Assembly: GCA_015711955.1 (NCBI GenBank)
Contig: JACVJK010000017.1
Span: 1-35,409 of the forward strand
Direction of reading: 5' to 3'
DNA from: Actinomycetota bacterium
Lineage (GTDB): Bacteria > Actinomycetota > Geothermincolia > Geothermincolales > RBG-13-55-18
DNA length: 35,409 bases
Below the pieces are notes generated by a model. That model was not told the DNA's origin, made no database searches, and saw only the letters and a program-made list of their open reading frames with translations. Each line of letters starts with the position of its first letter. Position 1 is the stretch's first letter. Of the stretch, positions 3,148 to 22,047 are shown in pieces. Both the position numbers and the translations under genes were made by a program.

Positions 3148-4830
3148 TCAGATGGCCACCACCCGCATGACCTCCTCGATGGAGGTTATTCCCATTTTTA
3201 CCTTTAAGAATCCGTCATCCCTCATGGTGATGAGTCCCTCTTCTTTCGCCTGTTTCATGATGGTGGTGGCCGAGGCCTCTCTCACGGTGAGTCTCTTTAT
3301 CTCCTCGCTCATGGGCATTACCTCATAGAGGCCGATCCTTCCCTTGTAACCGGTCCCGTTGCACTTGGCGCAACCGGTTTCGCTGGCCTTGTAAATGATG
3401 AGGCCCTTTTCCTCGCCTTCCGCCAGTGGAAAGCCTAAGTTCTTCAGGATCTCCGGATCTGGCTCATAGGGTACTTTACAGTTGGGACAGAGTTTTCTCA
3501 CCAGCCTTTGGGCCATCACGCAGGAGACTGCCGATGATACCAGGTAAGGTTCCACGCCCATCTCTATGAGGCGGGGAAGGGCACTCGGTGCGTCGTTGGT
3601 GTGGAGGGTGGAAAGGACCAAATGGCCGGTGAGGGCAGCCTCAATGGCCGTCTTGGCCGTCTCCCGGTCACGGATCTCGCCCACCATGATGATGTCGGGA
3701 GAGGTGCGAAGGATGTTCCTCAAAGCCGTGGCGAAGGTGAGTCCCGCCTTGGGGTTGACCTGTACCTGGTTTATGCCGGGGAGCCTGTATTCCACCGGGT
3801 CCTCCACGGTGGTGATGTTGCGGTCCTCGGTGTTGAGGACGTTGAGGGTGGCGTACAGGGAGGTGGACTTTCCGCTACCAGTGGGCCCGGTGACCAGGAT
3901 GGCCCCGTAGGGCTGAGTATAAGCCTTTCTGTACTTCTCCAGCGCCTCGGGCAGGAAGCCCAAGTCTTCCAAGCGCAAGAGGATGCTGGACTTGTCCAGG
4001 ATCCTCAGCACCACCTTCTCCCCATAAACTGTCGGCAAGACGGCCACGCGGAAATCGATGGCTTTTCCGTTGTGCACCATTCCGAAATGGCCGTCCTGGG
4101 GGACCCTGTGCTCGGCGATGTTGAGGTCGGATATGATCTTTATCCTGGAGATAATGCCGGTGTGGACGTTCTTGGGGACCCTTTTTATCTCCTGGCAGAC
4201 CCCATCGATCCGGTAGCGGATGAGCACCTCGTCCTCCCTGGGATCGATGTGGATGTCGCTGGCCCCCCGATTGACAGCTTCCGTAATGATAGTAGTGGTG
4301 AACCTCACCAATGGGGTGTCGTCCACCACCCCTCCCAGCTTTTCCTCCTCCAGGTCTTCTTCTTTGCCTTCCAGGGCCTCCTCCACCACGTCGGTATCCA
4401 GGTGGTAATACCTCTGAATGGCGTGGAGAATGTCCTCCTTTGCCGCTACCACCGGTTTCACCTGGTAACCGGTGGTCAGCCGGATGTCGTCCAGTGCGTA
4501 TATGTTGGTGGGATCCGCCATGGCCACCACCAGCTTGCCGTCCTCGAAGTCGATGGGGATGCAGAGATAACGGTTGGCCATGGCTTCAGAGATCATATTG
4601 GTGGCCTGGATATTGATCTTGTACTCCAGCAGGTCTACGTACTCCAGGCCCAGCTCCCGAGCGATGAGCTCCGCCAGCTGGTTTTCCTTGACGAACCCCA
4701 GCTCCAGAAGCACCCTCCCCAGAGAGGAACCGGTTTCCTTCTGTCTCTCAAGGGCTGCTTGGAGCTGCTTTTCGGTGATGACGCCGTGCTTCAAAAGAAG
4801 CTGCGATAGTCTGTCCGTCGAGGTGGGCAT
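3148..4830 (-). CDS. pilB: Type IV pilus / type II secretion assembly ATPase (PilB/GspE family)
   Basis: A full-length 560-residue hexameric extension ATPase. Residues ~1-145 are the MshEN-type N-terminal domain (KLVVAMADPTNIYALDDI). The core has Walker A GPTGSGKST at 315-323, Walker B with the family Asp/Glu (DIIMVGEIRD, 379-388), a His box (HLVLSTLHTNDAP, ~403-415), and a zinc tetracysteine site (CPNC at 448-451, CAKC at 487-490). These features distinguish PilB/GspE from the retraction ATPase PilT. It would power pilin polymerisation at the inner membrane. The start ATG has GAGGTG seven bases upstream. No pilin, PilC or PilT gene is visible nearby, so its partners must lie elsewhere. PilB versus GspE cannot be settled by sequence alone. 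Confidence 0.93.
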   Translation of the reverse strand: MPTSTDRLSQLLLKHGVITEKQLQAALERQKETGSSLGRVLLELGFVKENQLAELIARELGLEYVDLLEYKINIQATNMISEAMANRYLCIPIDFEDGKLVVAMADPTNIYALDDIRLTTGYQVKPVVAAKEDILHAIQRYYHLDTDVVEEALEGKEEDLEEEKLGGVVDDTPLVRFTTTIITEAVNRGASDIHIDPREDEVLIRYRIDGVCQEIKRVPKNVHTGIISRIKIISDLNIAEHRVPQDGHFGMVHNGKAIDFRVAVLPTVYGEKVVLRILDKSSILLRLEDLGFLPEALEKYRKAYTQPYGAILVTGPTGSGKSTSLYATLNVLNTEDRNITTVEDPVEYRLPGINQVQVNPKAGLTFATALRNILRTSPDIIMVGEIRDRETAKTAIEAALTGHLVLSTLHTNDAPSALPRLIEMGVEPYLVSSAVSCVMAQRLVRKLCPNCKVPYEPDPEILKNLGFPLAEGEEKGLIIYKASETGCAKCNGTGYKGRIGLYEVMPMSEEIKRLTVREASATTIMKQAKEEGLITMRDDGFLKVKMGITSIEEVMRVVAI

Positions 4831-5269
4831 AGCTTTTCACCTCATCAAGTTTCCCTTTCGTTTAGAGTAATCGACACAGTGTCTGTTTATCTATAGATGC
4901 TATCTGTGGTTGAGCGGGGCGAAATGCCCTGATTGACCCCCGGGAAACGCAAGAGATAAGGGCTCGATCAAATCGGTCCTCGATGTCGCTCGAAAAGGCG
5001 GGCTTTTGGGTATGGGGTTGGGTCATTTGTTCGGTCGGAGGTTTGTGGTTGATCACGCCTCCCCGATCAGAAACGGCCTACTGGTTTTCACCGGTTTGGG
5101 GAAAAGGACGAGAGTCATTTGGTTTTAAGGGGTATTGACATGGGTCGGTTCGGGATGGCACTTATCCCACGGTGAAGCGGGCGAGGAATCGTGGTTTCGA
5201 CGGAGGCGTGACCCAGGGGGGGCTGAAGGGAAGATGGGCCACTGTACTGGAAGACTCGAGCCCCCCGAT
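4831..5269. other. Intergenic region upstream of pilB
   Basis: About 440 bp between two minus-strand genes with no credible gene. Near pilB it holds two short perfect palindromes, GACACAGTGTC (4873-4883) and ATCTATAGAT (4889-4898), 43-68 bp before the start codon, which could be operator sites. A lone TTGACA lies near 5134 on the plus strand with no matching -10. Confidence 0.4.
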
Positions 5270-6226
5270 TCATTGGCCGGGAGGGTGCGTCTTTTTCAGG
5301 GAACGAGCGAAGTCTGCGTAGACGCATTCCGCGTTCCCGCAGCTGAAGCAGTCAGTGCTGAGGTATCTATCGCCTCGATCGGGAAGGATCACCACTATCT
5401 TCCCCCGCCCCATCCGCTCCGCTACCTGCAAGGCTGCATGCACCGCTGCTCCCGAGGAGATTCCCACGAAGAGGCCCTCAACCCTGGCCAGCACTCTCAC
5501 GGTGTTGAAAGCGCATCCGTCCTCCACGTTTATCCTCTCGTCTATGAGGGACAGGTCCATGATGGGGGGCATGAACTCTGAGAGGTTGCGGAGCCCCTGG
5601 ATGAGAGACCCTGGATAGGGTTCCACCCCCACAATTCGCAGATTTGGATAGGCCTCCCTCAGCCTTTTTCCCACCCCCATGATGGTGCCACCAGTGCCTA
5701 TCCCGGCCACCAAAACGTCTATGTCGTCCACTTGATGGAGGATCTCCTCGCCAGTTCCCTCGTAATGAGCGCGCACGTTGTCGGGATTAGCGAACTGGTT
5801 CGGATGGTAATAGGAAGGGTCCTCACTCATCTCCAAGGCTTTCTGGATGGCGCCGTTCATCCCTAGTTCTGCTGGGGTGAGGATTACCTCTGCCCCGAAA
5901 GCCTCCATGGCCCTTCGCCTCTCCACGCTCATCGATTCGGGCATCACGATCTTGAGGCGATATCCTTTATAAGCACATACCATCGCCAACCCGATACCGG
6001 TGTTGCCGCTGCTGGCCTCTATGACGGTCTTTTCCGGAGTGAGCTCCCCCCTGGCTTCTGCGCCCTCGATCATGTACTTGGCTATGCGGTCTTTCACCGA
6101 GCTGCAGGGATTGAAGCCTTCCATCTTCGCGTATATCTCCACATCAGGGTTGGAAGGCACCACCTTGGTAAGGCGCACCAGCGGGGTCCTGCCTATCAGT
6201 TCCAGGGGATTGTTGGCAGTGAACAT
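5270..6226 (-). CDS. cysK: Cysteine synthase (O-acetylserine sulfhydrylase family)
   Basis: A PLP-dependent fold-type II enzyme of 318 residues that makes cysteine from O-acetylserine (or O-phosphoserine) and sulfide. Visible motifs are the PLP lysine in NPCSSVKDRIA (K45), the substrate loop SSGNTGIG, the phosphate-binding GIGTGGT, and SSGAA near the C-terminus. Start ATG 6226 has AGGTG nine bases upstream. The C-terminus departs from the usual: after DRYLST comes DCFSCGNAEC, a C-x2-C-x4-C cluster close to the chain end, followed by a basic tail. No serine acetyltransferase is adjacent. CysK, CysM or a beta-synthase-like specificity cannot be separated here. Confidence 0.9.
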   Translation of the reverse strand: MFTANNPLELIGRTPLVRLTKVVPSNPDVEIYAKMEGFNPCSSVKDRIAKYMIEGAEARGELTPEKTVIEASSGNTGIGLAMVCAYKGYRLKIVMPESMSVERRRAMEAFGAEVILTPAELGMNGAIQKALEMSEDPSYYHPNQFANPDNVRAHYEGTGEEILHQVDDIDVLVAGIGTGGTIMGVGKRLREAYPNLRIVGVEPYPGSLIQGLRNLSEFMPPIMDLSLIDERINVEDGCAFNTVRVLARVEGLFVGISSGAAVHAALQVAERMGRGKIVVILPDRGDRYLSTDCFSCGNAECVYADFARSLKKTHPPGQ

Positions 6227-15102: not shown

Positions 15103-15142
15103 AACATATTAATGTTGACATACTTGAATAAGTTAATATAAT
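15103..15142 (+). promoter_or_regulatory. Near-consensus sigma-70 promoter of the pseudokinase operon
   Basis: TTGACA (15115-15120) and TATAAT (15137-15142) are both perfect and 16 bp apart, in a strikingly AT-rich patch. An inverted repeat AACAT-ATTA-ATGTT (15103-15116) touches the -35, and ACTT-GAAT-AAGT lies in the spacer; either could be a repressor site. GGAGGTGA then precedes ATG 15164. Confidence 0.88.
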
Positions 15143-15163
15143 TAAACTGATCGGAGGTGAACC

Positions 15164-16879
15164 ATGGGAAGGGTCTTGAAAGACAGATGGGTCGTTCGGG
15201 AGACCCTGAGAAGCGGAGAGTTCTGGTCCGTTCACTTAGCGGAGGACGTCATTTCTGGGATTGAGGTAGAGGTGGACGAGATCAAGCTGGGACGCGTCAC
15301 TGCCCAGGATGGGGATCGGTTGGTCGAGCTTTTGGAAATTAGCGCCTCTCTCTCCTCTCCATGCTTCCTTCCCCTTTTAGATTGGTGGACGGAAGGCGAT
15401 CGGTTGTTCGCAGTCAGTAGGAGGGTCAAAGGTTTAAGTCTCTGGGAGTGGATGGACTCGAAAGGCTCGACTGAGCCATCCTTGGCATTGCACCTTGCCA
15501 GGACCGTTAGCGAAGCCGCTTCGGAGCTTTATGGGAAAGGGTGTTCCTATCTGGGTATCAGCCCGCTTCGAGTACTCATCTCCGAAGGCATGGAGGTCTA
15601 TTTGGGAGGAGGAGCTCATGGATGGTTGCTCGAGGATCTTGAGCCTGACGTCTTCAGGCTTGTGGAGAGGTACCGTGCTCCTGAGACCGAGAGGAAAGTG
15701 GAAGGAGGCAGGCCCGCCGATGTATACACCCTGGCGCTTTTAACCCGCGAGCTTTTGCCTCCCGGACCTCTTCCGCCCCGCCTTTCCGGATTCTTGGATT
15801 CTTGTTTGAGCAAGCTCCCCGGAGGCCGGCCTACCTCACCTCGATTGCTGTTAGAGATTCTCGCAGAGGAGTGGAAGGGCTTTGGCCCCGGATTTCCGAT
15901 GGAGAACGGGAAAGGTGTTGGGCAGGTTTATGGTCGTTTCTCTCGGTCCGACCCTCGCTTGGATCCGCCCCACGAAAATGGCAATGTTTACCACCGCTTT
16001 GCGAAACGTATTGCAAAACGACGTCATACCGAAGGCCATGAGGTAGAGGAAGGAATTTGCGATGGACTTGACGCTAATAGAAATCGTAGCCTCAAGCCCC
16101 TGTGGCTCATCCTGGCGATATTTCCGGCTATTTTGCTAGCGCTTTTGGCCGTTTTCTCTGGGGGGAGGAGGAGTGAAGGAGAATCGGGATCGACGACGGG
16201 GATCGGTGAACGTGATTCTCGAATTAAGCTACCTGACTTGGTGGGCCTTCCTAAGGAAAAGGCTGCTGAGCTCCTATCTGATATGGGATTGCGGTTCACC
16301 TTGCGAGAATCGCCCTCCTCTTTATGGTCCGAGGGCACTGTTTGCGCCACCGAGCCCCCATCGGGTGCCATGCTTTCTCCGGGTGAACAAGTGATCCTTT
16401 CCGTGAGCAAAGGTTGGCCGCGGGATGCGCTTGCTGGGTCGACCACGTCTGTCGAACGAGACGGCACCTCGTCGCAAGCGCTCAACGGACGGGAAGGTCG
16501 AACCGTAGGCGCGGAAGAGGATACGAGTTTTGTTTCCAGTGGCACGCAAAGCGGGATCGGATCTCCCTCGTCAGGTGGAGGTAGAAAGGGGGTTTTGGAA
16601 AAGCAGTCAAACAGGGCACCTGTGGCTCGGCTATCGGTTAACCCATCAAAGGGCGCTGCCCCATTGACCGTGGTCTTGAGCGCCCGGGGATCCTTCGACC
16701 CTGACGGGAAGATAGTCAAGTATCAGTGGGATTGCGGTGACGGAACCACCCTTTTTGGGATGGTGGTTAGCCACGTCTACGATGCCGATGTGTTGCCTTG
16801 TGTCTTCAACATCACCCTTAAAGTCGTGGATGACAAAGGCTCAGAGTCGCATAGCAGGACCACGGTGACGGTTCTTTGA
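15164..16879 (+). CDS. Membrane pseudokinase with extracellular PASTA and PKD domains
   Basis: A 571-residue protein starting at ATG 15164 after GGAGGTGA. Residues ~1-240 have the layout of a bacterial Ser/Thr kinase: a glycine-loop relic (LRSGEFWSVHLAED), hinge (RLFAVSRRVKGLSLWEWM), and APE-like YRAPET followed by PADVYTLALLTREL. The catalytic residues are gone: the VAIK Lys is D, HRDxKPxN reads YLGISPLR, and DFG reads GGG. A basic linker leads to one TM (~311-331), one PASTA domain (~352-416), a Ser/Gly-rich stretch, and a PKD domain (~482-571; RGSFDPDGKIVKYQWDCGDG). PASTA domains sense peptidoglycan or lipid II in PknB-type kinases; PKD folds bind proteins or glycans. It is probably a scaffold or sensor at the wall. 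It heads an operon with the M23-like gene. Confidence 0.85.
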   Translation: MGRVLKDRWVVRETLRSGEFWSVHLAEDVISGIEVEVDEIKLGRVTAQDGDRLVELLEISASLSSPCFLPLLDWWTEGDRLFAVSRRVKGLSLWEWMDSKGSTEPSLALHLARTVSEAASELYGKGCSYLGISPLRVLISEGMEVYLGGGAHGWLLEDLEPDVFRLVERYRAPETERKVEGGRPADVYTLALLTRELLPPGPLPPRLSGFLDSCLSKLPGGRPTSPRLLLEILAEEWKGFGPGFPMENGKGVGQVYGRFSRSDPRLDPPHENGNVYHRFAKRIAKRRHTEGHEVEEGICDGLDANRNRSLKPLWLILAIFPAILLALLAVFSGGRRSEGESGSTTGIGERDSRIKLPDLVGLPKEKAAELLSDMGLRFTLRESPSSLWSEGTVCATEPPSGAMLSPGEQVILSVSKGWPRDALAGSTTSVERDGTSSQALNGREGRTVGAEEDTSFVSSGTQSGIGSPSSGGGRKGVLEKQSNRAPVARLSVNPSKGAAPLTVVLSARGSFDPDGKIVKYQWDCGDGTTLFGMVVSHVYDADVLPCVFNITLKVVDDKGSESHSRTTVTVL

Positions 16880-16890
16880 GGGTTTTGGGA

Positions 16891-18693
16891 ATGAGGACGT
16901 CGGGGAAAGAAAGAGGACGGCACACTCCAACTCCCATTCCGGGGATCGTTGGCCGGAGATCTCGATCATTTCCAATGACAAGAGAAGGAAAGCAAAAAAA
17001 CGATATAGCAGATCTGCTCCTCATTTTCCTGCCTCTCCTAACCCTCCTTATCTCCTTCCACCCTTGGCTCTCCCCGGCCCTCGCGGTCGGGGAGAGCCCA
17101 CCCCGATTCGATTGGCCGTTGAGGGGAAGGGTGAGCATGCCCTTCCGGCCACCGACGGGCCCTTATTGGGAAGGGGGGCATGCGGGACTGGACATCGAGG
17201 CCCCCAGGGGGAGTGAGGTGAGGGCCAGCGCTTTTGGCGTGGTGGCCTTTGCGGGCTTCACCCCCTTGGGTCTATGTGTTTCCATCGATCACCAGATGGG
17301 TTTTAGATCCACTTATGTGTCCCTTAAGAGGATTTACGTGAAAAAGGGGGATAAAGTCGAGCGGGGGCAAGTGATAGCCCTAAGTGATGGCTCTATGGAT
17401 CGGTCTTCGAGTTCTCCCCACTTGCATTTCGGGTTGTATCTAAACGGGAAGCCCGTGGACCCTTTTCCTTACCTTTCCGACGTCGATCCAGATCCGGGCA
17501 AATGCCTTTTCTTAGGGCCATGCCAAGAGGATTCGGGCAGGGTGGGAGTTTCGTCGTCGGACAGCCAGGAAAGTAACCCATCTTCCACGCCGGGAAGGGA
17601 GATCGTGAACGGGGAGATCTCAACTTATCGGATCGGGGACTCTGGAGGACGGGACGAAAGAGGGATCTGGGATAGGGCCACGGACTCGGTAAAGAGGTTC
17701 TTTCGGGAGCGCCTGGTGGGGATATTTATGTCCGCTGGAAAGGGCATATCTGCTGGAGTGAGATCATTGCTCTCCAACTCCTATGTCAAGGGAGCGTTGG
17801 CAGGACTTTTGGCCGCCCTGGTGGTTTGTTCCCTCGTCGTCGCCGGCGGTCTGGCCATGGGGATGTCCGTGGTTGCGCTCTCGGTGGCATGTTTGGCCGG
17901 CGGCCTGGCCTCCCTTGGATATTCCGTTTACTTAGCGGGAGCAAGAGGGGGAGGGATTTCTTTTTGGGGTTGTTTCGTATCTGGTCTGATTTTAGGCTTG
18001 TCGGTTGGTGGATCGGTCCTGTTGCTTGGCCAGCTGACCCCTATTTTATCATCGGGATTTGTTTCCTTAGGGTCGATGGGGTTTATCAAGAGTTTCATGG
18101 CCCATGGGGCATCCGGGTGTTTAGCTCATTGGCTCACTTCCCACATAAATGGAGAGCCCCTAGACCTTCGCTGGGCATTGTTGCTGTTTTTGACTTTTGG
18201 AGCCACCGGATCCTTAGGTAAAGCCCTGATAAATGGTCTTTCCCTTGCCAACCCCTACTTAACGACCGGCGTGAGGGCATTGACAGGAAAAGGCCTCGTT
18301 GTCGTCGCCCCCTACGTACTTGGAGGAGGTTTGCATAAAGTGCTTTCATTGGTGCTCCTTTCTGGTTGCTTTGGTGTACTTTCAGATATCTCCATAAATC
18401 TCGCGCTAGGAACATTTCCCAGTACCGAGGAAGTGGCCCTCTCCTTTTTGGGTGGTTGTCTCGCCGGAGCTATTGGCATCACGGTGAAATTGAGGTTTTC
18501 CGGGAGATTGGGGGGCAGAAAAGGTATTTTCGCTCGCCTGAGCAAAAGCGATTTCGTAAAGGGATTCACCGGCAAAGGCTTGGGAGGCACAGCCAGGGAA
18601 ATGTCAAGGAAATGGGCGAGGACGAAAAGAGGAGCGGAATCAGGGAGTTCAGCTGATCCAAACCCGTTCGTCTTTCGCGGTACTTTCGAATAA
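16891..18693 (+). CDS. Secreted M23/LytM-like domain fused to a multi-span membrane region
   Basis: ATG 16891 follows GAGGG by eight bases, 11 bp after the pseudokinase stop. ATG 16975 is an alternative giving a shorter signal sequence. A hydrophobic signal (LLLIFLPLLTLLISF ... SPALA) leads to an M23 domain (~residues 70-200) with the zinc ligands H97 and D101 (GGHAGLDIE) and the H177-L-H179 pair (SPHLHF). The usual YxHL motif reads YVSL, so one conserved catalytic His is missing. LytM-type enzymes cut peptidoglycan cross-bridges; degenerate members regulate amidases. After ~80 polar residues come roughly seven Gly/Ala/Ser-rich hydrophobic segments (~300-530) and a basic tail. A membrane tail this large on an M23 domain is unusual. 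Confidence 0.8.
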   Translation: MRTSGKERGRHTPTPIPGIVGRRSRSFPMTREGKQKNDIADLLLIFLPLLTLLISFHPWLSPALAVGESPPRFDWPLRGRVSMPFRPPTGPYWEGGHAGLDIEAPRGSEVRASAFGVVAFAGFTPLGLCVSIDHQMGFRSTYVSLKRIYVKKGDKVERGQVIALSDGSMDRSSSSPHLHFGLYLNGKPVDPFPYLSDVDPDPGKCLFLGPCQEDSGRVGVSSSDSQESNPSSTPGREIVNGEISTYRIGDSGGRDERGIWDRATDSVKRFFRERLVGIFMSAGKGISAGVRSLLSNSYVKGALAGLLAALVVCSLVVAGGLAMGMSVVALSVACLAGGLASLGYSVYLAGARGGGISFWGCFVSGLILGLSVGGSVLLLGQLTPILSSGFVSLGSMGFIKSFMAHGASGCLAHWLTSHINGEPLDLRWALLLFLTFGATGSLGKALINGLSLANPYLTTGVRALTGKGLVVVAPYVLGGGLHKVLSLVLLSGCFGVLSDISINLALGTFPSTEEVALSFLGGCLAGAIGITVKLRFSGRLGGRKGIFARLSKSDFVKGFTGKGLGGTAREMSRKWARTKRGAESGSSADPNPFVFRGTFE

Positions 18694-18719
18694 GTCATGA
18701 ACGGGAAAGGAGGGTTGTA

Positions 18720-19088
18720 ATGCAGGAAAGGAGCGACCTGGATGTTAACCTGATGGATGACTCCGAGAGGGGAATCAGTGAGGATGGATCGGGAAAACCA
18801 CCGATCTGCACGGGTGGCCATCGGTCCGCACAAATGACCTGGTTTCAGCTTTTTGTCCTCGTGGGGGTGGGACTCATCTTATTGGCCATGACCTATCTTT
18901 TTATGCCCCTTATACGGGGAGAACAGGGTTGGGTTCGTTATGCCCTCGTCTCTATCTTGTCCTGCGTAAGCTTGCTTTACTTGGTCCTTTTTTATACTTG
19001 GGAAATCAGGCCCTCCTATGGGAGATTCAGCATCCTGGCGCTTGCCGGTTATCTCCTCTTCTACTTCCTTCTCTCGTTACTCGTCTGA
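18720..19088 (+). CDS. Three-TM small membrane protein, third gene of the pseudokinase operon
   Basis: A 122-residue protein starting at ATG 18720, preceded by AAGGAGGG five bases upstream and 26 bp after the M23-like gene. The first ~38 residues are polar and acidic. Three hydrophobic helices follow (about 41-60, 72-92 and 104-121), separated by RGEQGWVRY and EIRPSYGR loops, with the chain ending inside or just after the last helix. I recognise no family. Its tight linkage and strong ribosome site argue that it works with the two preceding gene products in the membrane. Confidence 0.75.
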   Translation: MQERSDLDVNLMDDSERGISEDGSGKPPICTGGHRSAQMTWFQLFVLVGVGLILLAMTYLFMPLIRGEQGWVRYALVSILSCVSLLYLVLFYTWEIRPSYGRFSILALAGYLLFYFLLSLLV

Positions 19089-19279: not shown

Positions 19280-19837
19280 TCATGGAAGTTGCACACTGGC
19301 GTCTTTCTCTTTTTCCAGGGTTTCCGCAAAAACCTCCGAATGCGATTTCTCGATCCTGTCTCGCCGATAGGAAGGGTTTGTCAGGGATATGACGGCCAGC
19401 CAATAGAGGGCGAACATCGAAGACGCAAGGGTGAACAGAACCAGGGCCCAGAACTCGGTCGTGAAGAGGGCGAGCGAACCCCATAGCAGAGAATTGAGAA
19501 GGAGCGTGGCCATTATTCTGTTTCTCCTGATCTCTGCTTTGCTCGTCCTTTTCGGTCGTCCTGCCGCCCGATGGTCGCGATGGCGCATTACCAGAGATCC
19601 CTCGTGGCTTGCCGTACCGTATCTGGGGGTTGAAGTGGGCATCCCACGCCTTGTGATGTTAATTCGACTGTCTCGACGGGGGTCGCCCATGTTTAACGAC
19701 CTTCCCAGCTCGCTCATGCTCTTCTGGAAGTAATCGGCCGTTGCCACAGGGGATTCCTCAAGCCTTCCCCGAATCAGGGAGGGGATCACCAAAAGGACCG
19801 CCGCAAACCCCAAGAGGAGAAACACTAGGAACTCCAC
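19280..19837 (-). CDS. Three-TM protein with SepX/GlpR-like layout
   Basis: A 185-residue protein from GTG 19837, with GAGGGG seven bases upstream. It has an N-terminal TM (FLVFLLLGFAAVLLVIPSLI), then a juxtamembrane segment (SPVATADYFQKSMSELGRSL), a basic polar stretch (~50-105), and two closely spaced TMs (MATLLLNSLLWGSLALF and WALVLFTLASSMFALYWLAV). A charged tail follows. This order, and the short 'ADYFQKSMSELGRSL' helix after TM1, resemble the actinobacterial SepX/GlpR divisome proteins. The match is by layout only, so the assignment is tentative. It converges on the pseudokinase operon, with about 190 bp between the stops. Confidence 0.6.
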   Translation of the reverse strand: MEFLVFLLLGFAAVLLVIPSLIRGRLEESPVATADYFQKSMSELGRSLNMGDPRRDSRINITRRGMPTSTPRYGTASHEGSLVMRHRDHRAAGRPKRTSKAEIRRNRIMATLLLNSLLWGSLALFTTEFWALVLFTLASSMFALYWLAVISLTNPSYRRDRIEKSHSEVFAETLEKEKDASVQLP

Positions 19838-20730
19838 CAGTGCACCCCTCTCATTAAAGATCCGTCACACCATTTACTGCCTCTAGCCGGTTATTCGATG
19901 GAAGGGGCATTTCCTCCTTCAAGGAGAAAACATTTTCCCGTGAGCCCTTCGCTCTCCTCTAAGGCCCTCGCGAAAGGAATCGCCATTTTCCTGTCAGGCC
20001 TGGCAAAACGGGTATCCTGTCCCATTTGCTGTCCCGGTTAAAAGTCCAGCCGCATCCCCGTCAGGGAAAATCTAAACCGGGGGGGTGACATCTCGGGATC
20101 CCGGGGGGCTTCTTGGGCAAGCCGGTTTTCCTCGTATTATTTCTTATCCAAGATAGGCCTTGAGGCGAATAGACGAGTTGTGGTGCTGAAAGGGAATTCA
20201 GCCCAGGACAGGCCTAATAATAGCTGATTCACCCGTTTTATGTCGGTGATCCATTCCCGGGGGAGGTCTCACCGCCGCACAATCCCCCTATAGCCCCATT
20301 TGACCAAAGGTGCTCGTCATCGCGGCTGCTTTCTCGAACCTGAGCGACGTTTTTGGCGTGTCGGCGGCGAGCAGCTTATAATCTCTTTGTGACGCCAGAT
20401 AACCGTATTATGGATGGAATCGCCTTGTTTCAGCGCGTTCATAAAAGATCGAGGGAAGGGTTTTTCCGGGCAGGGAGTTCGAGCCCTTCAGGGTTCCAAA
20501 TCACCGATGAGAAGTTGGTGGTTTGACTCGTCGGGATTAATGCATCTCCGTTGCGAGATGAAAGCCGTGACTCCAAAAAAGCAGGGGTACATTTGACCTG
20601 TGAACGCCAGTGAACCTCTCTTGGGCGCGCATCGACTTGTGGTCATTGTCATGGGAGCCAGAAGCATATGGGATGAAAGGGCAACGGGCCTTCCGGAACG
20701 GCGGGACACTCCTGATCGTCAAACCCGAGT
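19838..20730. other. Long intergenic region upstream of the LCP gene
   Basis: About 890 bp with no convincing gene. A promoter-like TTGGCG-18-TATAAT lies at 20353-20382, about 350 bp before the LCP start. The 60-codon ORF at 20414 lacks a ribosome site and protein-like composition. A GTTCGAG near 20480 recalls a tRNA T-loop but no cloverleaf forms. A long leader or an unannotated small RNA is possible. Confidence 0.4.
20353..20382 (+). promoter_or_regulatory. Candidate promoter upstream of the LCP gene
   Basis: TTGGCG (20353-20358) and a perfect TATAAT (20377-20382) with an 18-bp spacer. If used, the transcript carries a ~340-nt leader before ATG 20731. Confidence 0.45.
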
Positions 20731-22047
20731 ATGGAACGAGCGGACAGAATGCCTCTGATTAGGAGGAAGAAGTGGATAGGGCGGCTGAAGCTGGCCGTTT
20801 GCTTGGCCCTTTTGGGCGGTCTGGTAGCTGGCTTACTCAACTTTAGCCACATAAAGGTCTGGGCCGCCAAGCATTACCTGAAGTTCCGCTTCAACCCTGC
20901 CGTGATAAGACCGGAACAGGAACCCGATCTCTATGCCCGACTCTCGTCTTGGCACAATCCAAAACAGCTGCTCAACGTCCTTTTCATTGGCATCGACAAG
21001 GGGAGCATTCCCGACGAGGACATGAAGTACTATCGTTCTGACGTGATCATGCTGGCATCGGTGAACGTGGACAAAAAGAAGGCGGTGGTGGTCTCCATCC
21101 CCCGGGATACCAAGGTGAGAATAGAAGGTCACGGTTACCAGAAGATAAACGCGGCCCATGCCTATCACGGCCCAGCTGGGACGGTGGAGGTGGTGGAGGA
21201 GCTCACCGGGATGGAGGTGCACCACTATGCCGAGGTGGACTTCGAGGCTTTCAAGAACATTGTCAACGCCATTGGGGGCGTCCCATTCCGATTGGAGGCG
21301 ACCATCAACGATCCCTTGGTAGGATATCTCCCCAAAGGGGAGCACCTCCTCAACGGCGACCAAGCCCTCATCTTGGTGAGGAGCCGAAAACTGCCTCGGG
21401 GCGACCTTGACCGCATCGAGAACCAGAAGAGGTTCCTCAGGGCTTTGATGGAGAAAGCCCTGTCCATCAGGGACACAAGGACCTTGCTGAACCTCCTCGA
21501 CGCCACCGTTCGCTACCTCAACACCACCATGCAGCCCGAGATGATTTTCGCCTTGGCCGAGCTCATGCAAGGGATGAAGGTGGAGGACGTGGAGTTCGCC
21601 ACCATCCCCGGGGATTCGCCTAAACCGGCGCCGGGGCAGCCGTGGTATTTCGTTCACGATGTCAATGAGACCAAAAGGCTTTTCGACAACATCAGGAGAT
21701 ATTGCAGCGTTCGGGAGCCAGGAGAGGAAAACGTATCGATGGTGGTGCAGGAGATGGCGGAAAAGGCCGCCGTGGCGGTGCTAAACGGGTCCAAGGTGGA
21801 CGGGTTGGCGAGGAGGACTTCAGATTACATCAAGGACTACGGATTCGTCGTGACCAAGGTGGGTGACGCCAGTCAGGTTTATTCCAAGACAAGGATCTTT
21901 TACCGGGAAGATAGCAGGTCGACGGCCGAGAAGCTGGCTTCCCTGCTTAACATAGGAAAGGGAGCTCTAAGTGAAGATAGAGCGGTGTCGGAGAAGCACC
22001 AAGCCGGGGTGGTGCTGGTGATCGGAAAGGATTTCCGGCTTCCGTGA
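20731..22047 (+). CDS. LytR-CpsA-Psr (LCP) family protein with LytR_C domain
   Basis: LCP proteins transfer lipid-linked glycopolymers (teichoic acids, arabinogalactan, capsule) to peptidoglycan on the outer face of the membrane. This 438-residue protein has a short basic N-terminus and one TM (AVCLALLGGLVAGLLNF). The LCP domain follows with LNVLFIGIDKG, RSDVIMLASVN, the arginine motif VVSIPRDT, KINAAHAYHGP, and the GDLDRIENQKRFLRAL region. The C-terminus (~350-438) is a LytR_C domain starting AAVAVLNGSKVDGLARRTSDY. Start ATG 20731 has no obvious ribosome site, and ATG 20749 is a possible alternative. The LCP plus LytR_C pairing is common in actinobacteria. It stands alone as a transcription unit. 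Confidence 0.9.
   Translation: MERADRMPLIRRKKWIGRLKLAVCLALLGGLVAGLLNFSHIKVWAAKHYLKFRFNPAVIRPEQEPDLYARLSSWHNPKQLLNVLFIGIDKGSIPDEDMKYYRSDVIMLASVNVDKKKAVVVSIPRDTKVRIEGHGYQKINAAHAYHGPAGTVEVVEELTGMEVHHYAEVDFEAFKNIVNAIGGVPFRLEATINDPLVGYLPKGEHLLNGDQALILVRSRKLPRGDLDRIENQKRFLRALMEKALSIRDTRTLLNLLDATVRYLNTTMQPEMIFALAELMQGMKVEDVEFATIPGDSPKPAPGQPWYFVHDVNETKRLFDNIRRYCSVREPGEENVSMVVQEMAEKAAVAVLNGSKVDGLARRTSDYIKDYGFVVTKVGDASQVYSKTRIFYREDSRSTAEKLASLLNIGKGALSEDRAVSEKHQAGVVLVIGKDFRLP

What the first reader, a model, noticed from the sequence alone, without database searches (positions are those of the whole stretch)
15103..19088. Candidate undescribed envelope system: pseudokinase-PASTA-PKD, M23-membrane fusion and 3-TM protein in one operon
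Three tightly spaced genes (gaps 11 and 26 bp) sit under the best promoter in the window. One has a dead kinase inside and PASTA plus PKD outside, the next a degenerate LytM domain joined to about seven membrane spans, the third is a three-TM protein. Seen: domains, spacing and promoter. Known: PASTA modules bind wall precursors, and degenerate LytM proteins can act as regulators. Inferred: a signalling or scaffolding complex that couples wall state to a membrane channel-like part, built from inactive versions of active enzymes.
Basis: partly seen in the sequence, partly recalled or inferred. Interest (0 to 1): 0.8.

Follow-up and report, generated by a model that had tools for sequence, protein, structure and literature searches.

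The report
Conserved cell-wall operon of inactive enzymes
A three-gene set, kept side by side throughout one order of uncultured actinobacteria, encodes a dead kinase with cell-wall-binding parts, an altered zinc peptidase fused to a membrane domain of unknown kind, and a small membrane protein; it looks like a non-enzymatic sensor or scaffold linked to cell-wall growth and division, but its function is untested.

Summary
The three genes are real, as described, and conserved. The genome is an incomplete MAG of the class Candidatus Geothermincolia. Pseudokinase–TM–PASTA(–PKD), M23–polytopic-membrane and 3-TM genes lie in the same order in every testable genome of its order: 17 of 17 for all three genes, counting one across a contig break. 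A TTGACA-type promoter precedes the first gene in all 16 members aligned. The kinase has lost the VAIK, HRD and DFG residues in every member, yet is under strong purifying selection (dN/dS about 0.13–0.21), while a canonical PASTA kinase sits elsewhere in the same genome. The M23 domain is only partly degenerate: all zinc ligands and the HxH catalytic histidine are invariant, but the second catalytic histidine (LytM H260, Pgp3 H216) is missing in all 29 sequences. The membrane domain is class-wide, absent from 272 other actinobacterial genomes, and matches no solved fold. The operon faces a SepX/GlpR-like divisome gene and lies near an LCP gene. Best reading: a non-catalytic or weakly catalytic wall-state scaffold. 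A channel role is unsupported, and replacement of the flippase MurJ is rejected. I found no published description. Function is inferred, not shown. New variant of known kinds.

The parts
15115..15142 (+). sigma-70-type promoter TTGACA-N16-TATAAT
   Evidence: 12 of 12 consensus matches; -35 TTGACA/TTGACT kept upstream of the orthologous gene in 16 of 16 aligned order members
15164..16879 (+). gene 1: membrane pseudokinase with PASTA and PKD outside (571 aa)
   Evidence: ordered kinase, PASTA and PKD domains in the AlphaFold2 model
15164..15883 (+). pseudokinase domain (aa 1-240): beta3 Lys, HRD and DFG lost, APE kept
   Evidence: closest solved folds Stk1/PknB and PknA; dN/dS 0.13-0.21 in relatives
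16094..16159 (+). transmembrane helix of gene 1 (aa 311-332)
   Evidence: hydrophobic helix in the model
16223..16411 (+). single PASTA domain (aa 354-416)
   Evidence: Pfam PF03793, E 2.8e-12
16610..16873 (+). PKD domain (aa 483-570), present in family f1 only
   Evidence: Pfam PF18911, E 1.3e-15; absent in f2 and f3 orthologues
16891..18693 (+). gene 2: M23 (LytM) domain fused to a polytopic membrane domain; the frame is open from TTG 16876 (605 aa from there)
   Evidence: homologues in 30 of the 31 genomes of the class held, counting the window's own
17011..17067 (+). signal or anchor helix of gene 2 (aa 46-64)
   Evidence: averaged hydrophobicity over 22 homologues
17104..17481 (+). M23 domain (aa 77-202): zinc ligands H102, D106, H184 and catalytic H182 kept; second catalytic His replaced by S149
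17776..18495 (+). class-specific membrane domain of gene 2 (about aa 301-540)
   Evidence: absent from 272 other actinobacterial genomes; AlphaFold2 pLDDT 79.7; no PDB fold match
18720..19088 (+). gene 3: 3-TM protein (122 aa)
   Evidence: orthologues follow gene 2 in all 17 testable order genomes
19280..19837 (-). neighbour, convergent: SepX/GlpR-like 3-TM divisome protein
   Evidence: 13 of 13 orthologues hit the NCBIfam SepX_GlpR models, below cut-off; single copy in 30 of 31 class genomes
20731..22047 (+). neighbour: LytR-CpsA-Psr (LCP) family protein
   Evidence: Pfam PF03816, E 3.8e-41

Best explanation
The operon encodes a membrane-embedded, largely non-catalytic sensor or scaffold for cell-wall state, acting with the division and wall machinery of Geothermincolales. 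Outside the cell, the PASTA and PKD modules of gene 1 and the zinc-bearing but catalytically altered M23 groove of gene 2 bind wall peptides, wall precursors or a wall hydrolase (inferred). Gene 2, with its lineage-specific membrane domain, is the ancestral core, and the 3-TM protein is its small partner (inferred from linkage). Inside, the pseudokinase cannot phosphorylate (shown at sequence level only) and acts as a docking platform. It may be phosphorylated by the genome's canonical PASTA kinase and recruit an FHA protein, as the MviN pseudokinase does in mycobacteria (analogy only).
For: Same gene order in every testable order genome. The pseudokinase lacks all three catalytic motifs in every member yet has dN/dS 0.13-0.21. 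The second M23 catalytic His is lost in 29 of 29 while zinc ligands are invariant. PASTA domains of PknB bind lipid II and muropeptides (PMC6428115). M23 folds lacking catalytic motifs act as interaction hubs (PMC9662197). The MviN pseudokinase recruits FhaA after PknB phosphorylation (PMC12599244). A canonical PASTA kinase and FHA genes are in the same genome. A SepX/GlpR-like divisome gene and an LCP gene are neighbours.
Against: No physical or expression data. The zinc site and the HxH catalytic His are intact, so peptidase activity is possible. Only one PASTA domain is present and one family lacks both PASTA and PKD. No conserved juxtamembrane phosphosite was seen. Gene 2 exists without gene 1 in f4-f7.
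Confidence: 0.45

Rival explanations
1. Gene 2 is a working, tightly gated zinc endopeptidase. The first His of HxH suffices for catalysis, and the pseudokinase and 3-TM proteins are its membrane regulators.
For: HxxxD and HxH are invariant in 29 of 29. The first HxH His is proposed to activate the water, and the extra His only 'might' take part (PMC9662197). C. difficile SpoIIQ, with intact zinc motifs, needs them for its full role (PMC4982068).
Against: The second His is called strictly conserved and core to catalysis in M23 enzymes (PMC6978369) and is absent in all 29 homologues. A second M23 protein of the same genome keeps it.
Confidence: 0.27
2. Gene 2's membrane domain moves or flips a wall component, and the pseudokinase regulates this transporter in the way the pseudokinase regulates MviN/MurJ function in mycobacteria.
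For: Polytopic membrane domain, confidently modelled; MviN precedent for a pseudokinase tied to a membrane wall protein (PMC12599244).
Against: No transporter fold match. MurJ is present in 19 of 19 high-quality class genomes, so no lipid II flippase is missing. No conserved charged or polar residues beyond glycines, one Lys and one Asn stand out in the membrane domain.
Confidence: 0.12
3. The three genes are merely co-transcribed envelope genes without a shared complex or pathway.
For: The unit is composite: gene 2 is class-wide, gene 1 only in one order, PKD only in one family. No physical data.
Against: Identical order with short or overlapping junctions in most members, across three families.
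Confidence: 0.16

Closest known systems
PASTA Ser/Thr kinases (PknB / Stk1 / StkP)
   Same: Cytoplasmic kinase fold, one TM helix, PASTA outside; closest solved folds are Stk1/PknB
   Different: All catalytic motifs lost, single PASTA, added PKD, operon partners differ; NCBIfam PknB_PASTA_kin 47 bits against a cut-off of 450
MviN (ActPs3) and other actinobacterial pseudokinase families ActPs1-3, GLW
   Same: Actinobacterial membrane pseudokinase with all three motifs lost (PMC12599244)
   Different: Not fused to MurJ. Motifs VxVD/YLG/RVG differ from ActPs3 (VALT/Lsidhpsr/Y--), from the Arg and Asn replacements of ActPs2, and from GLW. The review does not describe PASTA or PKD on any of its families
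Degenerate LytM factors (EnvC, NlpD, SpoIIQ, Csd2)
   Same: M23 fold with altered active site in a wall or division setting
   Different: Those named lack zinc ligands; here all zinc ligands stay and one catalytic His is lost, as reported for LECT2 (PMC9662197). Fused to a polytopic membrane domain
rpsB/tsf-linked short M23 proteins of actinobacteria (Rv2891-like by recall)
   Same: Zinc ligands kept and no His at the LytM-H260 place in L090 and L091
   Different: No membrane domain, different neighbours; that these are Rv2891 orthologues was not tested
C. difficile SpoIIQ-SpoIIIAH
   Same: Membrane-anchored LytM protein with zinc site used in a complex (PMC4982068)
   Different: Sporulation engulfment channel; no SpoIIIAH partner seen, no pseudokinase

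Membership tests
Active PASTA Ser/Thr kinase | beta3 Lys, HRD Asp and DFG Asp present | tested here: not met
   Lost in every order member; canonical paralogue in the same genome keeps them
Active PASTA Ser/Thr kinase | Kinase fold, one TM helix and extracellular PASTA | tested here: met
MviN-type (ActPs3) pseudokinase | Pseudokinase fused C-terminal to MurJ, or ActPs3 motifs | tested here: not met
   Different architecture and motifs
Active M23 peptidase | HxxxD and HxH zinc and catalytic motifs | tested here: met
   29 of 29 homologues
Active M23 peptidase | Second catalytic His (LytM H260 / Pgp3 H216) | tested here: not met
   S, A, C, D or G in 29 of 29
Active M23 peptidase | Peptidoglycan hydrolysis | not testable with these tools
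   needs biochemistry
Degenerate LytM factor of EnvC/SpoIIQ type | Loss of zinc ligands | tested here: not met
   ligands invariant
SepX/GlpR (neighbour gene, not the operon) | 3 TM helices with a cytoplasmic disordered region | tested here: met
   3 hydrophobic helices around a basic, low-complexity stretch, as described for GlpR
SepX/GlpR (neighbour gene, not the operon) | NCBIfam model match over cut-off | tested here: inconclusive
   13 of 13 members hit, best 7.3e-8, all below cut-off as far as shown

The most novel reading that the evidence does not exclude
An undescribed wall-surveillance complex whose kinase and peptidase parts have both lost catalysis: a PASTA/PKD pseudokinase and a zinc-binding but non-cutting LytM protein with a new membrane fold together report wall state to the divisome of Geothermincolales.
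Probability: 0.35. Interest if true: 0.72.

Novelty: new variant of a known kind. Interest (0 to 1): 0.52.

Why it matters
If true, it would be a natural case in which a wall-sensing kinase and a wall peptidase were both turned into binding proteins and joined in one conserved operon. It would give uncultured, deep-branching actinobacteria a wall-to-divisome signalling route that does not use phosphotransfer by the receptor itself. Even if gene 2 proves active, the class-wide M23-membrane fusion is, as far as I could find, an undescribed architecture with a membrane domain of unknown fold.

Tried and rejected
(1) MurJ replacement: the window genome has no MurJ hit, but relatives do, 19 of 19 high-quality genomes, so the gap most likely reflects an incomplete MAG (79%). 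(2) Known fold for the membrane domain: none in PDB. (3) Homology of gene 3 to the small 3-TM ORFs that follow gene 2 in f4 and f6: not shown by profile comparison (probability 2.5%); only position and topology are shared. (4) Phage or mobile origin: PHROGs hits of gene 2 are to its M23 domain only (one reaches just past its end), none for genes 1 or 3. (5) Alignment error behind the kinase motif losses: canonical kinase paralogues in the same alignment read correctly. (6) Conserved juxtamembrane phosphosite: none seen. (7) A promoter motif unique to this operon: similar TTGACA-TTATATAA sites occur elsewhere, a few per genome. (8) Known operon in the literature: searches for pseudokinase/PASTA/LytM and PASTA/PKD gave no such system.

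Full report
What is there. Three ORFs lie head to tail on the + strand at 15164-16879, 16891-18693 (open from TTG 16876) and 18720-19088. Each has a purine-rich ribosome-binding site. A perfect TTGACA-N16-TATAAT lies at 15115-15142. The window belongs to G000, a 2.1-Mb, 79% complete assembly. Named relatives found by sequence are Candidatus Solincola, Geothermincola and Geohydrothermomicrobium, which places it in the class Candidatus Geothermincolia of the Actinomycetota. Family labels f1-f7 are those of the genome tool; f1-f3 form one order.

Gene 1. Pfam finds PKD (1.3e-15), PASTA (2.8e-12) and a sub-threshold kinase (4.6e-6). AlphaFold2 gives a confident kinase domain whose closest solved folds are Stk1/PknB and PknA. 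Across all order members the beta3 Lys is replaced by Asp or Glu (V-x-V-D type), HRD by Y-L-G type and DFG by R-V-G or G-G-G type, while the APE motif and the helix-F Asp remain. In the same alignment the canonical PASTA kinase of the same genome (L137:1406-3313) shows VAVK, HRD and DFG, which controls for alignment error. dN/dS of the pseudokinase domain is 0.13-0.21 in seven within-genus pairs, as low as or lower than that of gene 2, so it is not decaying. The outer part varies: PASTA plus PKD in f1, PASTA only in f3, neither in f2.

Gene 2. The M23 domain (1.5e-24) follows a signal or anchor helix and precedes a linker and about 6-7 membrane helices with a basic tail. In 29 of 29 homologues with the region, H102xxxD106 and H182xH184 are kept, and the residue at the place of LytM His260 / Pgp3 His216 is S, A, C, D or G, never His. 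The best PDB hit is a Pgp3 chain in which this His is itself mutated to Ala. Another M23 protein in the same genome keeps the His. The literature says that the three ligands bind zinc and the first His of HxH activates water, and that the extra His may take part (PMC9662197) or is core to catalysis (PMC6978369). So zinc binding is expected, and catalysis is doubtful but not excluded. Short M23 proteins near tsf and pyrH in other actinobacteria (L090, L091) also lack the His, so the loss may be older than the fusion; this was not tested with a tree. The membrane domain is found in all 25 class genomes of a 297-genome phylum sample and in none of the other 272. Its model is good (pLDDT 79.7, core above 90) but matches nothing solved (best E 0.82).

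Gene 3. A 3-TM protein with a conserved R-P-x-Y-G region after the second helix. It matches no known family and is found only within the order in a 150-genome phylum sample. In f4 and f6 a small 3-TM ORF often overlaps the end of gene 2 by 4-16 bp, but homology was not shown.

Linkage. Gene 1 followed by gene 2 is present in all 18 genomes of the order held (G006 across a contig break). Gene 3 follows in all 17 where the contig continues. In f4-f7 gene 2 is kept without gene 1, among unrelated neighbours such as a PEPCK-like and a ferredoxin-like gene (names by reading the sequences). The unit was therefore assembled stepwise: an M23-membrane core in the class, the pseudokinase joined in one order, PKD added in one family. 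This order of events is inferred from the distribution.

Context. Convergent to the operon lies a 3-TM protein whose 13 orthologues all hit the SepX/GlpR divisome models at sub-threshold scores. GlpR is a 3-TM receptor that links FtsZ-bound Glp with Wag31, and its sequences are noted as very divergent (PMC10522489). The gene is single-copy in 30 of 31 class genomes. An LCP gene follows, and the GlpR-like/LCP adjacency also exists in f4 where the operon is elsewhere. In most f1 relatives xseA- and xseB-like genes lie between. FHA genes are present in all 13 relatives searched.

Mechanism. Shown: the gene set, its conservation, selection on the pseudokinase and gene 2, motif losses, retention of the zinc ligands, and context. 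Inferred: that the proteins form a complex, that PASTA, PKD and M23 bind wall material, and that the pseudokinase passes this on as a docking platform, possibly after phosphorylation by the canonical PASTA kinase, as for MviN (PMC12599244). A channel is unsupported. A flippase role replacing MurJ is rejected, since MurJ is present across the class.

Verdict. A real, conserved and apparently undescribed operon; a new variant of known kinds (PASTA kinase and LytM factor) with one orphan membrane domain. Its mechanism is partly supported, with the LytM degeneracy corrected.

Noticed in passing
window 19280-19837 (-): SepX/GlpR-like divisome membrane protein, universal and single-copy in the class (30 of 31 genomes), next to the operon in f1-f3 and elsewhere in f4-f7.
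   Followed up: yes
L182:5458-7867: In an f4 genome the GlpR-like gene sits next to an LCP gene although the operon is elsewhere, so the GlpR-like/LCP pairing seems older than the operon's arrival beside it.
   Followed up: partly
L137:3695-5509 (same genome, contig C4), also L138:2107-3648, L139:2120-3706, L140:1304-2938: Further PASTA pseudokinases in f1 genomes (HRD replaced by HGS/HGG types), beside the canonical PASTA kinase in L137, L138 and L139; a second, separate set of dead PASTA kinases.
   Followed up: partly
L090 about 4627-5001, L091 about 5459-5824: Short M23 proteins near tsf/pyrH-like genes in other actinobacteria keep the zinc ligands but lack the LytM-H260 His (F or W instead).
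   Followed up: partly
upstream of gene 1 in order members (window 15115-15160): The promoter region carries AT-rich, partly palindromic stretches (AGTTATATAACT, TTAAGTTA) that recur in many members and at a few other places per genome; an operator is possible.
   Followed up: partly
window 19838-20730: The XseA/XseB-like genes found between the GlpR-like and LCP genes in most f1 relatives are absent here in the window.
   Followed up: no
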